5,678 nt of DNA from Anaerolineales bacterium. Its GTDB lineage: Bacteria > Chloroflexota > Anaerolineae > 4572-78 > J111. This document shows, one piece after another, positions 901 through 5,678 of this stretch (its first letter is position 1; each line of letters begins with the position of its first letter). The DNA lies in NCBI GenBank assembly GCA_012032575.1, contig JAAUSP010000506.1, positions 1 through 5,678 on the forward strand. Direction: 5' to 3'. The notes beneath the pieces were generated by a model. The model did not search any database. It saw nothing but the letters and a program-made list of their open reading frames with translations, and was not told where the DNA came from. Position numbers and translations under genes: made by a program.

Positions 901-993
901 TCAGTGGATCCAAATTTACCAGCAGCGGCGGCTCCCACGCCGCTGCTACGCAGGCGTGGGAGCCTGCTCCGCTTCAAAAATTGGATCTATTGA
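901..993 (+). repeat. Imperfect 93-bp palindrome with two mutually exclusive internal hairpins
   Basis: The outer arms 901-913 and 981-993 pair over 13 positions with two G-U wobbles (core GATCCAA / TTGGATC). Inside, arm 921-930 pairs perfectly with 938-947 (10 bp, 7-nt loop, AGCAGCGGCG / CGCCGCTGCT). Alternatively 930-941 pairs perfectly with 953-964 (12 bp, 11-nt loop, GGCTCCCACGCC / GGCGTGGGAGCC). The two inner stems share 930 and 938-941, so they cannot form together. The block begins about 20 nt after the predicted transcription start. It could be an attenuator-like leader RNA or a small palindromic mobile repeat (MITE or REP-like). No U-tract follows either stem, so simple intrinsic termination is not supported. 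Confidence 0.55.
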
Positions 994-1161: not shown

Positions 1162-1578
1162 ATGACCGAACTCAAAACCAAACCCACCGAACAAAGCGTG
1201 GAAGCGTTTCTGCAAGGAGTTGACAATGAGCAGAAACGCCAGGACTGCTTCACCGTGCTGGAACTGATGCGCCGGATCACCGGCGAGGAACCAAAAATGT
1301 GGGGCAGCAGCATGGTCGGCTTTGGCCGCTACCACTACAAGTACAACAGCGGCCATGAGGGCGATGCCTTCCTGACCGGCTTCTCGCCTCGCAAACAAAA
1401 CCTGACCCTTTATATCACCTCCGGCTTCGAGCAATTCCAGCCACTGCTGCAAAAACTGGGCAAACACACCACCGCCAAATCGTGCTTGTATATCAAGCGC
1501 CTCCAGGATATTGACCTGCCCACCCTGGAAGAACTGATCCGGCAGTCGGTCCAGACTATGAAACAGACCTGGACTTAA
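1162..1578 (+). CDS. DUF1801 domain-containing protein (YdhG-like)
   Basis: A 138-residue soluble protein that is essentially one DUF1801 domain (PF08818 family). Conserved blocks are EEPKMWG (42-48), SSMVGFGRYHYKY (49-61), TGFSPRKQNLTLYI (72-85) and LGKHTTAKSCLYIKRL (99-114), followed by an LEELIRQSV helix (122-130). Length and block order match stand-alone family members. The family is widespread and structurally characterised, but no biochemical role is firmly established, so none is given. The ATG at 1162 has GGGGGA upstream. It appears to be a single-gene unit: the nearest rightward promoter is at 844-873, and the next gene downstream is convergent. There is no signal peptide or membrane segment. 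Confidence 0.9.
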   Translation: MTELKTKPTEQSVEAFLQGVDNEQKRQDCFTVLELMRRITGEEPKMWGSSMVGFGRYHYKYNSGHEGDAFLTGFSPRKQNLTLYITSGFEQFQPLLQKLGKHTTAKSCLYIKRLQDIDLPTLEELIRQSVQTMKQTWT

Positions 1579-1603: not shown

Positions 1604-1699
1604 TGTCATTCCCACCTGCGAAGCGGGAAGGAATCTTCTTTATCGTTGTAAAAATTCTTTGGCGAAGGCGGAGATTTCTCGCTGGCACTCGAAATGACA
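1604..1699. repeat. 96-bp inverted-repeat element with TGTCATT / AATGACA ends
   Basis: The ends TGTCATT (1604-1610) and AATGACA (1693-1699) are perfect inverse complements. The arms continue as imperfect copies of each other: left arm TGTCATTCC..GCGAAGCGGGAAGGAATC; right arm, read in reverse, TGTCATTTCGAG..AGCGAGAAATCTCC. This resembles a motif family (TGTCATT-CGAG-AGCGAG-AATCTC) dispersed between genes in many bacterial genomes. It lies between two convergent genes, so its transcript could fold and act as a bidirectional stop or stabiliser. It has no coding capacity. Confidence 0.55.
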
Positions 1700-1827: not shown

Positions 1828-2475
1828 TTACTGAATGAGTTGGTTTAAGGCTGCCAGCAAAGCTGTTTGTTCTGCTTGAGTGAGGGGAGGAGTTATATCC
1901 GTCGTACCGGCGACAAGGGCCGTTTCCAGCACAGCCTGACTCATAACCTGGCGGTCCAGCCGGTCTTCGATGCTTTGCAATCGCTGCGGTGAGCGGGTAG
2001 GGCTGCTGATTGTCAGTCGCACGTGACCGGCCACACGGAGCTTCTCGTGCAGATCGAGGCGGGCGGCGAGCCAGCTTTCCCCTTCAATCACCGCAAACTG
2101 GTAGCGTCCACCGGGATTGAGGGGCGGCAGGCGCAGCGCTTGCAGGGGGGCACGTTCCGGCGGCAGGCTGGCCCGGTAGCTCAAAAATCCGGACAACGGC
2201 AGCACCCGCCGGTCCTCGCCTACCTGGGCATGCACTTCGGCATCCAGCGTGAGCAGTGCGGTGAGCAGTGGATAGCTTTCCGGGCCGCCGCTATGGTGCA
2301 AAGTTTCAGCCAGAGACAGGTTGAAGGTTGAAGGTTGAAGGTTGAAGGTTGTGGTCAGGGCAGCGTGGAGCAGTCCGCCGGCAAAAGCCTGCACGGCTTC
2401 AGCTTCCAGCAGGCGGGCCAGGGCTGCGCCGGTCGAAAGATATAAACCGTCGGGTTGTTCAAAAGTTATCGTCAT
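1828..2475 (-). CDS. CoxM/XdhB-like FAD-binding subunit family protein, short and diverged
   Basis: This 215-residue protein resembles the later two thirds of the medium, FAD-binding subunit of molybdenum hydroxylases (CO dehydrogenase CoxM family). Visible parts are a YPLLTALLTLDAEVHAQ strand (68-84), VLPLSGFL (91-98), LQALRLPP (111-118), and a C-terminal CO-deh-flavoprotein-like region, AVIEGESWLAARLDL (128-142) to VRLTISSPTRSPQRLQSIED (152-171). Family members are usually about 280-300 residues. The N-terminal FAD-contacting segment with its AGGT motif is absent, and a low-complexity insert TTFNLQPSTFNLSL (42-55) sits where the GG-x-GN region is expected. FAD binding is therefore doubtful. 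No CoxL or CoxS partner is nearby; it sits 17 bp after the glycosyltransferase gene and is probably cotranscribed. The ATG at 2475 has GGGGATGG upstream. The family call is from residue pattern, not a search. Confidence 0.55.
   Translation of the reverse strand: MTITFEQPDGLYLSTGAALARLLEAEAVQAFAGGLLHAALTTTFNLQPSTFNLSLAETLHHSGGPESYPLLTALLTLDAEVHAQVGEDRRVLPLSGFLSYRASLPPERAPLQALRLPPLNPGGRYQFAVIEGESWLAARLDLHEKLRVAGHVRLTISSPTRSPQRLQSIEDRLDRQVMSQAVLETALVAGTTDITPPLTQAEQTALLAALNQLIQ
2318..2351. repeat. Heptanucleotide tandem repeat (AGGTTGA x ~4.9) inside a coding region
   Basis: Four perfect AGGTTGA units (2318-2345) plus six bases of a fifth (2346-2351). On the coding (minus) strand the unit gives the peptide pattern TFNLQPSTFNL at residues about 43-53 of the CoxM-like protein. 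Since 7 is not a multiple of 3, gain or loss of one unit would shift the frame. Confidence 0.9.
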
Positions 2476-2492: not shown

Positions 2493-4553
2493 CTACTTGC
2501 AGCCATCCGGGTCAACCGTAATGGGCAGCGTGACCTCGCCAAAGGTGGGGAACTGGTTGTCCCGCACCTGATACAAATTGACCACCAAATTCACGCCGGG
2601 CAGCGCTGCCGGCTGGCGGATGAGCATATCCACTTCATCGCGCACAATCTCCCCCGGCCTGATCTGCGAGGTGGGTAAATAACCGCGCATCAGGCCCAGG
2701 TGATCGTTTTTATCCAGCACGGTTTCGCCGCCCAAAGGCTGCACTGCCACAAAATAATCCTGGTCAAGCGGCTGCTCAACCCGCCAGAAGAGGGTCAAAC
2801 GCAGAAAACAGCCGGTGCGCTTGCGGCTAATCTGCTCGTGGTAAGCAATAATTGAAGCCTGACCGTCGAGAAATTGGCCGGGCGGAATCTGGGTCCAGGC
2901 TTCTTTTTCGGGCAGGGTCGTGGACATGGGCCGGGGTAACAACTCCCACAGGTAGGGGTGGCCGGTTGGGGCCAGAAAAATCTGGCCGCGCTTGGTGGCC
3001 GCCGACAACCAGGGAATAAAGTTCAAATCAATGGTTTCAATATCTATCAACACCCGCCGGCCCTGGTCAAAGCGATCTTCCAGCAGGGCAATACTTTCCT
3101 GCTCCGGCATGCGGCTGAGGGTCGTCGTCGAAAGCGGCTCGACCGGCTGGCCCAGCACGACCTGGGCGTAAATAAAATTGGGCAATACGCTGTTGTCCTG
3201 GCCGATAATGGTCAAGGGTGTACCGGCCCTGGCCATGGCGACCACCTCTTCCACCAAATCCTCGGCCTGCCAGTCGCCGCTCAGGTTAACCTCTTCATAA
3301 TTAGCCACGGCCAGGGGCCGGAAGAAAAAGTAAGCCCCGGCGGCCAGCCCCAGCGACAGCACCACCCGCACCGTGACCCGCAGCCAGCGATCTCTGATAG
3401 CTTCCCCTTTGATACGGATAGCACCCACAATCCACTGAATCAGATAACCCACCAGCACGCCCAGGCCAATACAGAGGGTCAGGGTGAGCGGGATAAGCAT
3501 GCTGTCCAGATCGGCCACGTGATAGGCTGCGCCAAAAAAGACAAAGGCCAGCAGCGGCGGGCCGAACAGAAACAGCCGACGCTCGGTGAGGAGCAGCCCC
3601 ACCAACCCCAAAAGCACACCCGCAACCGTTATCTGATCGGCCTGCTGACGCAGCAGCGTTTCCAGCGCCTGCCCCCAATCGGCCAGAGTGACCGGGATTT
3701 GGACCAGGCCCCACCACTCGCGGGTCAATATCACAAACCAAAAGATGTTCCAGTCGGATGTGTCGGCGTACAGCCAGGTTTGGCCCACCCGGAACGTGGC
3801 AGCCCAGGGTAAATAAAGGTACGACAGCGGAGGCACAGCCGCAGCGATAGCCAATACTACCCAGCGCAGGCCCAAAATCAGCACCCAGCCCCGGCCCCGG
3901 TCGGTTTCGGCCAGGGTTTTGAGCAGCACCCACAGGGCCATGGTCGGTAGCAAAATGAGGGCCGTGCGATGATGCGCCAGACCGGCCCCGACGGCCAGCC
4001 CCAGCGCCATCAGCCGCCGTTCGGTGGGCGCATCGGCCCAGTAGAGTGCCAGCCAATAGGTAAAGGCAAAAATAAAGGCGTTCAGGCTGTAGACTTCGGC
4101 CATGATCGCGCCGCGCCAAAAAATAAAGCTGATCCCCAGGACCATGCTGGCGACAATTGCCCCCACCCGGTCTTTGGTCAGTTTCCAGACGGTAAAATAA
4201 ACAAAAATCAAGGTTAGCAGGCTGGTGGTGGTTGACCAAAACGTGACCCGCCAGGCCACCGAGGTTTCGGTCAGGCCGGGTAATAACCCCACCAGCCTGA
4301 CAAAAATATTGGCTAAAAGGGTGTAAAGTGGATAGCCGGGCGAGTGCGGCGCGCCCCAGGTGCTGCCGGTAATTTGCAGCACCGCCGAGTCCCAGCCTTC
4401 GATGATCCACGAACTCATGCCCGGCGGCATGGTCTGCCAGTAGAGCCAGGCACATCCACCCACCACCGGAATCAGTTCCCAGGGCCAGTATAACAAGAGC
4501 AGTAGTCTTTGCCAGCTCAGCAGCGAAGGGGCGACACGGGCTTGAGTAACCAT
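2493..4553 (-). CDS. DUF2723 / TMEM260-type polytopic membrane glycosyltransferase
   Basis: A 686-residue integral membrane protein of the DUF2723 family (PF11028), related to TMEM260 O-mannosyltransferases, which act as GT-C-type enzymes on the outer face of the membrane. Numbering from this ATG: D55 in GWDSAVLQ after the first membrane span, HSPGYPLY (70-77), AEVYSLNAF (152-160), LAHHRTALILLP (193-204), and YHVADLDSMLIPL (344-356) late in the membrane domain. About ten or more hydrophobic spans run to residue ~415. A soluble C-terminal domain of ~270 residues follows, without a recognised fold and probably extracytoplasmic. The ATG at 4553 is preferred to a TTG 39 bases upstream because that TTG overlaps the predicted -35. 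It is the first gene of a leftward unit with the CoxM-like gene. Donor and acceptor are unknown; protein O-glycosylation or cell-surface glycan assembly is likely. Confidence 0.82.
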   Translation of the reverse strand: MVTQARVAPSLLSWQRLLLLLYWPWELIPVVGGCAWLYWQTMPPGMSSWIIEGWDSAVLQITGSTWGAPHSPGYPLYTLLANIFVRLVGLLPGLTETSVAWRVTFWSTTTSLLTLIFVYFTVWKLTKDRVGAIVASMVLGISFIFWRGAIMAEVYSLNAFIFAFTYWLALYWADAPTERRLMALGLAVGAGLAHHRTALILLPTMALWVLLKTLAETDRGRGWVLILGLRWVVLAIAAAVPPLSYLYLPWAATFRVGQTWLYADTSDWNIFWFVILTREWWGLVQIPVTLADWGQALETLLRQQADQITVAGVLLGLVGLLLTERRLFLFGPPLLAFVFFGAAYHVADLDSMLIPLTLTLCIGLGVLVGYLIQWIVGAIRIKGEAIRDRWLRVTVRVVLSLGLAAGAYFFFRPLAVANYEEVNLSGDWQAEDLVEEVVAMARAGTPLTIIGQDNSVLPNFIYAQVVLGQPVEPLSTTTLSRMPEQESIALLEDRFDQGRRVLIDIETIDLNFIPWLSAATKRGQIFLAPTGHPYLWELLPRPMSTTLPEKEAWTQIPPGQFLDGQASIIAYHEQISRKRTGCFLRLTLFWRVEQPLDQDYFVAVQPLGGETVLDKNDHLGLMRGYLPTSQIRPGEIVRDEVDMLIRQPAALPGVNLVVNLYQVRDNQFPTFGEVTLPITVDPDGCK

Positions 4554-4562
4554 AACGAGCCT

Positions 4563-4592
4563 ATGATAAAGCCAACAGGGGGCTTTTGGCAA
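4563..4592 (-). promoter_or_regulatory. Predicted promoter of the DUF2723 gene, giving a near-leaderless transcript
   Basis: Read on the minus strand: -35 TTGCCA (4592-4587; 5 of 6), an 18-bp spacer and -10 TATCAT (4568-4563; 5 of 6). Transcription would start about 4557-4555, only a few bases before the ATG at 4553. There is little room for a Shine-Dalgarno site on such a transcript. Confidence 0.5.
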
Positions 4593-4595
4593 AAG
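4583..4595. promoter_or_regulatory. 13-bp perfect palindrome over the -35 of the DUF2723 promoter
   Basis: CTTTTG-G-CAAAAG is perfectly symmetric about base 4589 and covers the predicted -35 hexamer (4587-4592). A protein dimer bound here would block or modulate leftward transcription. The symmetry is seen; the operator role is inferred. Confidence 0.4.
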
Positions 4596-4631
4596 TTAAA
4601 AAGAACACCAATTCGCTCTCCTGGAAACTGG

Positions 4632-4660
4632 TTGCTTTAGCCGCTGTTTCGGTGTACTAT
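4632..4660 (+). promoter_or_regulatory. Predicted promoter of the 4736-5071 gene
   Basis: -35 TTGCTT (4632-4637), a 17-bp spacer and -10 TACTAT (4655-4660). Transcription would start near 4667, leaving a leader of about 69 nt. The leader contains GACCGC (4677-4682) able to pair with GCGGTC at 4695-4700 or with a second copy at 4709-4714. Confidence 0.4.
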
Positions 4661-4720
4661 ATGACTGCCGACGACAGACCGCCGTCAATTTTCAGCGGTC
4701 AGCCGTCTGCGGTCGTTTTG

Positions 4721-4728
4721 AAAGGTGA
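4721..4728 (+). promoter_or_regulatory. Shine-Dalgarno site deciding the start at 4736
   Basis: AAAGGTGA ends 7 nt before the ATG at 4736. The longer in-frame reading from a TTG at 4586 lacks such a site and would run through the predicted promoter, so the shorter protein is preferred. Confidence 0.7.
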
Positions 4729-4735
4729 CATACAA

Positions 4736-5071
4736 ATGAGCTTCGGTATTAGCAAAACTATTCCGGCCCAGGATGGGATCGAAACGGTCAATGCCTTGTA
4801 TAACGGCGCACTGACCGAGTACGAATTCCATATGAAGGGCAAACCCTCCAAACTCAACGTGGGCGATTATGTTTATACCATTTTCAACGATCACCTGATC
4901 GGGCGGCTCAAGATCAAGCAGTTGATCGAGGGGGCCATCAACCCGGAGTCGGGCCAACCGCGCACGCTGATCCTGGTCGAAGCGCCGGGAGAGCGGCTGG
5001 CTGCGCCTGTGCCCAAAAAGGGCCATCGTGGCACTCGCTACTATGACGGGGCGGAGTGGCCCAAAAAATAG
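4736..5071 (+). CDS. Hypothetical protein, 111 residues, possibly PUA/ASCH-like
   Basis: I do not recognise this protein with confidence. It is soluble, with no signal peptide or membrane span. Its centre reads KLNVGDYVYTIFNDHLIGRL (about 43-62), followed by a KIKQLIEG strand/helix and TLILVEAPGERL. The pattern 'VGD-V-x-x-x-G-x-K' followed by a beta-rich segment is seen in small PUA/ASCH/EVE-type barrels that bind RNA or modified nucleotides, so that fold is a guess. The tail is basic and aromatic: KKGHRGTRYYDGAEWPKK. It starts at ATG 4736 behind AAAGGTGA and ends 19 bp before the TTG of the next gene, which suggests cotranscription. An RNA-binding role would fit a tRNA-synthetase neighbour, but this is only context. 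Confidence 0.65.
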   Translation: MSFGISKTIPAQDGIETVNALYNGALTEYEFHMKGKPSKLNVGDYVYTIFNDHLIGRLKIKQLIEGAINPESGQPRTLILVEAPGERLAAPVPKKGHRGTRYYDGAEWPKK

Positions 5072-5077
5072 TAAACT

Positions 5078-5084
5078 AAGGAGA
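5078..5084 (+). promoter_or_regulatory. Shine-Dalgarno site deciding the TTG start at 5091
   Basis: AAGGAGA lies 6 nt before TTG 5091. The site is near-perfect, the next codons begin the conserved AsnRS N-terminus (SNIVAIQSI), and no ATG is nearby, so the TTG start is well supported. Confidence 0.8.
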
Positions 5085-5090
5085 CTTAAA

Positions 5091-5678
5091 TTGAGCAACA
5101 TCGTAGCCATCCAAAGTATCGCCCAACACGTGGGCGAAGAAGTAACTATTCAGGGCTGGCTTTATGCCCGTACCGATAAAGGTAAATTACAGTTTCTCCA
5201 GGTACGCGATGGCACCGGCACCATGCAGGCCGTGCTCTTTCGCGGCAATGTGCCGGATGAGCGGCTGGCGCAGATGCTGGATCACTTCACGCAGTACGTC
5301 GGATCCTCGCCGGAGCAATCACCGGCCATCCTCTGCGCCATCGCCCACATGCAGACAGACCGCGGCGTGTGGTACCCCATGGGCGGCACCGGTGCAGTCC
5401 CCAAAGCACTGCGCAAGCTTGGCGGTGAATTGGGTGTGAACTTTGTCAACGGTGTACAGGTGCGTCGGATCCTCCGTGAAAATGGCCGCGTGGTCGGCGT
5501 GGAGACCAAGGAAGGTTCACGTTTCGAGGCTGATGCAGTGATCTCCAACATGGATGCCCTGCGCACCTATCGTGAACTGGTGGGTGGAACGGAGGCTCAG
5601 CGCTTTGAATCACGGCGAAGCTTCGAGCCTGCCTGTTCTGGTGTGGTGCTGTATCTGGGTTTGAAACAGCGCTACGAA
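5091..5678 (+). CDS. Chimeric ORF: asparaginyl-tRNA synthetase N-terminus joined in frame to a CrtI-like phytoene desaturase segment, partial (runs off right edge)
   Basis: Of 196 visible residues, 1-54 match the OB-fold anticodon-binding start of bacterial AsnRS (AsnS): VTIQGWLYARTDKGKLQFLQ (18-37), VRDGTGTMQAVLFRGNV (38-54). From about 55 the frame continues as the middle of a CrtI-family carotenoid desaturase: HFTQYVGSSPEQSPAI (65-80), AHMQTDRGVWYPMGGTGAVP (85-104), ELGV (113-116), GRVVGVETKEG (132-142), ADAVISNMD (147-155), PACSGVVLYLGL (180-191). These fit desaturases such as those of Planctomycetes. The AsnRS class II catalytic core is missing, as is the CrtI N-terminal GxGxxG fold (about 200 residues), so neither activity is expected from what is visible. 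The join lies near 5250-5260. It has a near-perfect Shine-Dalgarno and probably shares a transcript with the gene ending at 5071. Both halves are confidently recognised; whether the join is biological or an assembly artefact is not decidable here. Confidence 0.85.
   Translation, partial: MSNIVAIQSIAQHVGEEVTIQGWLYARTDKGKLQFLQVRDGTGTMQAVLFRGNVPDERLAQMLDHFTQYVGSSPEQSPAILCAIAHMQTDRGVWYPMGGTGAVPKALRKLGGELGVNFVNGVQVRRILRENGRVVGVETKEGSRFEADAVISNMDALRTYRELVGGTEAQRFESRRSFEPACSGVVLYLGLKQRYE

What the first reader, a model, noticed from the sequence alone, without database searches (positions are those of the whole stretch)
5091..5678. In-frame AsnRS OB-fold / CrtI desaturase chimera
The ORF passes without stop or frameshift from the start of an asparaginyl-tRNA synthetase (residues 1-54) into the interior of a phytoene-desaturase-like enzyme (from about residue 55). 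I know of no natural protein with this architecture. Each half lacks the other part it needs: no AsnRS aminoacylation core and no CrtI N-terminal FAD-binding fold. The simplest explanation is a contig chimera or a deletion/recombination joining asnS to crtI. A preserved frame has about a one-in-three chance of occurring at random, so it is not strong evidence of selection.
Basis: partly seen in the sequence, partly recalled or inferred. Interest (0 to 1): 0.8.

Follow-up and report, generated by a model that had tools for sequence, protein, structure and literature searches.

The report
Chimeric contig end joining two genes
A short metagenome contig joins the start of a tRNA-charging enzyme gene to the middle of an unrelated pigment-enzyme gene at a short stretch the two genes share by chance; this is very probably a sequencing or assembly artefact, not a new protein.

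Summary
ORF 5091-5678 reads asparaginyl-tRNA synthetase (AsnRS) to about residue 57, then the interior of a CrtI-type phytoene desaturase up to the last base.

The window appears to be a whole 5,678-base contig, open in a gene at both ends. The left part is Anaerolineae (Chloroflexota): its membrane-protein gene and AsnRS start match that group. Intact 445-residue AsnRS reach 89% identity over the first 57 residues. The right part is the last 417-429 bases. Its best protein relative is 70% identical; the 80 genome loci kept are mostly Alphaproteobacteria.

The joint lies at 5250-5261, in Val-Pro-Asp-Glu, which members of both families carry in register there. Bases 5241-5261 match the homologous codons of Azospirillum crtI at 19 of 21; only 28 of 400,000 random joints shared 4 or more residues. 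A joint on in-register shared codons keeps the frame open automatically.

Among listed hits no other protein has both domains: 1 of 120 (the window itself) and 0 of 120. Neither half keeps its catalytic parts. Verdict: chimeric contig end. No reads were available, so a real rearrangement is unlikely but not excluded.

The parts
5091..5249 (+). 5' end of asnS (asparaginyl-tRNA synthetase residues 1-53; TTG start; truncated OB-fold)
   Evidence: best 89% identity over 57 residues; 120 listed AsnRS relatives used
5250..5261 (+). joint zone: codons Val-Pro-Asp-Glu, compatible with both AsnRS and CrtI in register
   Evidence: VPDE at this place in 6 of 120 AsnRS and 14 of 113 CrtI relatives
5262..5678 (+). 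interior fragment of a CrtI-type phytoene desaturase, running off the contig end
4736..5071 (+). small unnamed protein (111 aa from its ATG) directly upstream of asnS
   Evidence: the ORF listing gives a longer frame from 4586; no Pfam or NCBIfam match for 4586-5071
2493..4553 (-). TMEM260/DUF2723-like membrane protein, Anaerolineae; places the left part of the contig
   Evidence: P0121 96% identical, 686 aa, its start fixing the ATG at 4553; named hits are Anaerolineae, Anaerolineales or Chloroflexota

Best explanation
The ORF is an artefact at the end of a short metagenome contig. The contig is an Anaerolineae (Chloroflexota) genome fragment that should continue into an intact asnS. At 5250-5261 the sequence switches into the middle of a crtI-type gene, most likely from another organism in the sample, for the last roughly 420 bases. 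The switch happened at a stretch that asnS and crtI share by chance (R-G-[N/H]-V-P-D-E; 19 of 21 bases alike in the nearest crtI DNA seen), either by a false join in assembly or by template switching or chimera formation in library amplification. Shown: the two-part make-up, the joint position, the shared stretch and the lack of any other such protein among the listed hits. Inferred: that it arose in vitro or in silico, that the crtI part is from another organism, and which artefact route applied. The confidence is for an artefact of either kind, the within-genome misassembly listed as a rival included.
For: Two unrelated domain matches meet at residues 52-57. Conserved AsnRS positions fit the window up to residue 57, and conserved CrtI positions fit from residue 54 on (exceptions in the Against line). 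Intact AsnRS of 445 aa with 89% identity over the first 57 residues occur in Anaerolineae (P0242). The left neighbour is 96% identical to P0121, and its named relatives are Anaerolineae or Chloroflexota. Five longest-contig lengths (2909, 9605, 19287, 24488, 34642) appear in both the TMEM260 and the AsnRS hit lists with shared sources, which suggests that this neighbourhood normally holds an ordinary asnS (an inference from lengths). The fused architecture was seen in 1 of 120 listed proteins (the window itself, one member, contig of 5678 bases) and in 0 of 120 listed. The seven crtI loci whose match reached far left of the joint have an ordinary CrtI N-terminus with a GxGxxG and no AsnRS-like stretch. 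VPDE occurs in register in 6 of 120 AsnRS and 14 of 113 CrtI. Window 5241-5261 agrees with Azospirillum crtI (L005, L009, L010, L012) at 19 of 21 bases, with a 12-base exact run. Random in-frame joints with at least 4 shared residues: 28 of 400,000. A second joint inside an AsnRS gene, with a PLP-enzyme (PF00291) part, is P0343.
Against: No reads, coverage or mate pairs were available. Composition does not prove a break: GC is 52.2% (159 nt) left and 60.0% (417 nt) right, GC3 58% and 67%, and five other genes of the window range from 63% to 82% GC3. The switch is not perfectly clean: beyond the joint, AsnRS relatives still agree with the window at residues 60 (19%), 79 (40%) and 83 (100%), and before it CrtI relatives agree at 43 (96%), 47 (83%) and 51 (96%). 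I take these as chance single-residue matches, residue 51 being part of the shared stretch. The parent crtI DNA was not found (best protein 70%), so the true length of the shared stretch is unknown. The exact run seen, 12 bases, is shorter than usual assembly words. Part of the 21-base match is expected if 5250-5261 itself came from crtI.
Confidence: 0.93

Rival explanations
1. A real illegitimate recombination in an Anaerolineae cell placed a piece of crtI into asnS at a short shared sequence, giving a broken gene. The cell would need another asnS copy or the indirect route to Asn-tRNA.
For: The frame is open and the overlap at the joint is the kind that microhomology-driven recombination uses.
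Against: No second occurrence among the listed hits. None of the 80 crtI-bearing record titles names a Chloroflexota, though 158 further matches were not listed. The joint lies about 420 bases from the contig end.
Confidence: 0.05
2. A functional fusion protein, with an OB-fold fragment serving as an RNA- or partner-binding module on a desaturase.
For: Open frame with a Shine-Dalgarno-like AAGGAG.
Against: The OB-fold is cut in half (36 of 75 model positions, against 74 of 75 in P0242). PF00152 is absent. The CrtI match starts at position 169 of 504, so the N-terminal FAD-binding part is missing. No homologous fusion seen among the 120 listed hits each.
Confidence: 0.01
3. A misassembly within one genome: the crtI fragment comes from elsewhere in the same Anaerolineae genome. 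This is a variant of the artefact reading and its share lies within that confidence.
For: Composition of the two parts is not clearly different, and the parent genome of crtI was not identified. No Chloroflexota genome could be searched here.
Against: Named relatives of the crtI part are from Pseudomonadota, Planctomycetota, Verrucomicrobiota and Gemmatimonadota (phyla of the named taxa recalled); none of the names shown is Chloroflexota. Most hits bear no taxon.
Confidence: 0.1

Closest known systems
Asparaginyl-tRNA synthetase (asnS; TIGR00457, PRK03932; PF01336 + PF00152)
   Same: Residues 1-57 align to Anaerolineae AsnRS, up to 89% identity over all 57. Intact relative P0242 matches solved AsnRS 5zg8 over residues 6-445
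   Different: Stops in mid OB-fold; the class II aminoacylation domain is absent
CrtI-type phytoene desaturase / diapolycopene oxygenase family (TIGR02734, PF01593)
   Same: Residues 54-196 align to CrtI, best 70% identity (P0002)
   Different: Lacks the N-terminal roughly 170 residues with the FAD-binding fold, and the C-terminus, which lies beyond the contig end
Interspecies chimeric contigs of metagenome assembly
   Same: Two gene parts with different relatives joined in mid-gene at a short shared sequence, near the end of a short contig. [quoted passage not shown]
   Different: PMC8171044 speaks of evolutionarily similar species; here the parents are unrelated genes, and the exact shared length and the read support are unknown

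Membership tests
Asparaginyl-tRNA synthetase | N-terminal OB-fold (PF01336), complete | tested here: not met
   Profile positions 1-36 of 75 only; intact relative P0242 has 1-74 of 75
Asparaginyl-tRNA synthetase | Class II catalytic domain PF00152 | tested here: not met
   Absent from the ORF; present in P0242 at 116-439
CrtI phytoene desaturase | N-terminal FAD/NAD-binding Rossmann fold | tested here: not met
   crtI_fam match begins at profile position 169 of 504; relative P0014 has NAD_binding_8 at residues 9-72
CrtI phytoene desaturase | Central CrtI region | tested here: met
   TIGR02734 E 1.6e-29, residues 52-192, 103 bits against a whole-protein cut-off of 238.1, as expected for a fragment
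CrtI phytoene desaturase | C-terminal part | not testable with these tools
   The contig ends at 5678
Chimeric contig | Mid-gene switch between unrelated genes with different relatives | tested here: met
Chimeric contig | Architecture confined to one contig | tested here: met
   Among listed hits only: 1 of 120 (the window itself); 0 of 120; 614 and 283 further hits were not shown and not inspected. Seven crtI loci with matches reaching far left are ordinary CrtI
Chimeric contig | Shared sequence at the joint | tested here: met
Chimeric contig | No or few spanning reads, coverage step | not testable with these tools
   No reads are held; no whole genome held for the window

The most novel reading that the evidence does not exclude
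A real, microhomology-driven insertion of a foreign crtI fragment into asnS in a living Anaerolineae lineage, making a transcribed OB-fragment/desaturase fusion.
Probability: 0.03. Interest if true: 0.4.

Novelty: not a real feature. Interest (0 to 1): 0.05.

Why it matters
It matters mainly as a caution. Single-contig domain fusions in metagenome catalogues should be checked for short shared sequence at the joint and for distance from the contig end. When the two parent genes share codons in register, the chimera is in frame by necessity, so an open frame is no evidence of a real fusion gene. P0343, an AsnRS joined to a PLP-enzyme part, looks like a second case of a joint inside asnS.

Tried and rejected
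Own-genome search for intact asnS and crtI: no genome is held for the window. Search of 149 genomes of the phylum of G002: 77 of 149 have a match, with AsnRS identities of only 39-50% in the best rows, so this is unlikely to be the window's phylum and it was not pursued. The 14 control genomes listed include no Chloroflexota. Viral contig scans with the ORF, the TMEM260-like protein and the small protein gave no relatives. Plasmids: 193 records match, 60 shown, and the features named there are crtI, other carotenoid desaturases or oxidoreductases (some rows name none). 27 records hold a place covering at least 80% of the query; the rows shown of that kind are 26-38% identical and bear desaturase names, oxidoreductase names or none, so I read them as weak CrtI alignments running past the joint, not fusions. 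Eight of the 80 loci have matches starting before residue 43; the seven that start at residue 36 or earlier (L002, L013, L017, L021, L022, L046, L057) were checked and have an ordinary CrtI N-terminus. Rfam: no match at gathering score. An 18-nt, 89% direct repeat, 4984-5001 against 5252-5269, touches the joint. I treat it as chance, because the left gene reads normally up to 5249 and the copy at 4984 lies in another gene. Composition as a test of a break: inconclusive. Literature: no paper holds 'asparaginyl-tRNA synthetase', 'phytoene desaturase' and 'gene fusion' together in the library searched. Structure prediction was not run, since a half OB-fold joined to a desaturase interior would not bear on the artefact question.

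Full report
What is there. The frame 5091-5678 is open to the last base of the window. Pfam gives an OB-fold match on residues 18-57 and an amine-oxidase match on 57-155. NCBIfam gives asnS on 7-52 and crtI_fam on 52-192, entering the CrtI profile at position 169 of 504. The likely start is TTG behind AAGGAG at 5078-5083. Two of the closest intact relatives, P0243 and P0244, also begin with a residue written L. The protein search lists the window's own protein as one member on a contig of length 5678. I infer that the window is a complete contig and that both of its end genes, an ABC transporter ATPase at 1-585 and this ORF, are cut by the contig ends.

Where the left part comes from. The membrane protein at 2493-4553 has relatives of 96% and 92% identity, and among the 120 listed hits those with a taxon in their name are Anaerolineae, Anaerolineales or Chloroflexota. 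The first 57 residues of the ORF are 89% identical to an intact 445-residue AsnRS from an Anaerolineae bacterium, P0242. All 120 listed hits carry both the OB-fold and the class II synthetase domain. P0242 matches the solved AsnRS 5zg8 over residues 6-445. Five longest-contig lengths (2909, 9605, 19287, 24488, 34642) appear in both lists with shared sources. I take this as a sign, not proof, that the membrane protein and a normal asnS are linked in relatives.

Where the right part comes from. In the collection of 84,980 species genomes, 238 stretches encode a relative and the best 80 were kept. Most of these match residues 43 or later to 196, with best-segment identities of 49-65%. By title 76 of 80 are Alphaproteobacteria such as Azospirillum, Methylobacterium and Roseomonas (class of the genera recalled); the others are L002 (a bacterium without further name), L023 (Proteobacteria), L061 (Lysobacterales) and L069 (Salinisphaera). 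None names a Chloroflexota. Seven loci whose match began at residue 36 or earlier were read further: each has an ordinary CrtI N-terminus with a GxGxxG, and the stretch before the joint scores 23-42 against AsnRS P0242, where the window's own stretch scores 246. The protein search gives 70% for P0002. The parent gene itself was not found.

The joint. I placed 120 AsnRS and 119 CrtI relatives in ungapped register with the ORF. Conserved AsnRS positions fit up to residue 57. From residue 58 to 90 agreement is zero or near zero except at 60 (19%), 76 (8%), 79 (40%) and 83 (100%). Conserved CrtI positions fit from residue 54 on; between 37 and 53 they agree only at 43 (96%), 47 (83%) and 51 (96%), with 9% or less elsewhere. 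Residues 54-57, Val-Pro-Asp-Glu, fit both: VPDE stands there in 6 of 120 AsnRS and 14 of 113 CrtI, 6 CrtI relatives not reaching that far left. At DNA level, 62 of 80 crtI loci carried the search motif (18 were dropped). Their 21 bases homologous to 5241-5261 agree with the window at 14.3 of 21 on average, against 6.3 for other in-frame windows in and around the gene. 26 of 62 reach 15 or more, against 2 of 31,310 background windows. The best five agree at 19 of 21, four of them with a 12-base exact run. Part of this agreement is expected if 5250-5261 is itself crtI DNA, but the codons before it (Arg-Gly, and the last two bases of Asn/His) also agree in those best rows. Among 400,000 random joints between 110 AsnRS and 119 CrtI, 28 had a shared run of 4 or more residues. 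So the two genes were most likely joined at a stretch they share, and because the sharing is in register the frame had to stay open.

How it arose. Joining at a short shared sequence, in mid-gene, between parts with different relatives, about 420 bases from the end of a short contig, is what a false assembly join or a library/amplification chimera produces. [quoted passage not shown] I cannot tell the two routes apart. The exact run seen, 12 bases, is shorter than usual assembly words, but the parent crtI could share more.

Why it is not a functional fusion. The OB-fold is cut at half (36 of 75 model positions; 74 of 75 in P0242), the class II domain is absent, and the FAD-binding N-terminus of CrtI is absent. 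No other protein with both domains was seen among the 120 listed of 734 hits, or the 120 listed of 403. The size limits (up to about 380 residues; about 237-754) together cover the fusion length that I expect from the profile, about 385-390 residues. A separate AsnRS chimera, P0343, joins AsnRS to the C-terminal part of a PLP-dependent enzyme at about residue 257-286; it is 1 of the 120 listed AsnRS hits.

What remains open. No reads were available, and no Chloroflexota genome could be searched (one search lists the controls). Composition is inconclusive: GC 52.2% left, 60.0% right; GC3 58% and 67%, against 63-82% in five other genes of the contig. A real rearrangement is therefore unlikely but not excluded.

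Noticed in passing
P0343 (protein, contig of 18126 bases): A Chloroflexota-type AsnRS that switches to the C-terminal part of a PLP-dependent enzyme (PF00291; cysteine-synthase-like by eye) at about residue 257-286; probably another chimera.
   Followed up: partly
window 901-993: Imperfect palindrome with 41-nt arms (76% complementary, 11-nt loop) between genes, perhaps a small mobile or repeat element.
   Followed up: no
window 2318-2351: 4.9 perfect copies of a heptamer AGGTTGA inside the minus-strand frame 1828-2475.
   Followed up: no
window 1162-1578: DUF1801 protein (PF08818, E 2e-14).
   Followed up: no
window 1605-1698: By eye, an intergenic stretch opening with GTCATTCC and closing with GAAATGAC, resembling dispersed palindromic repeats; the repeat search at 14 nt minimum did not report it.
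   Followed up: no
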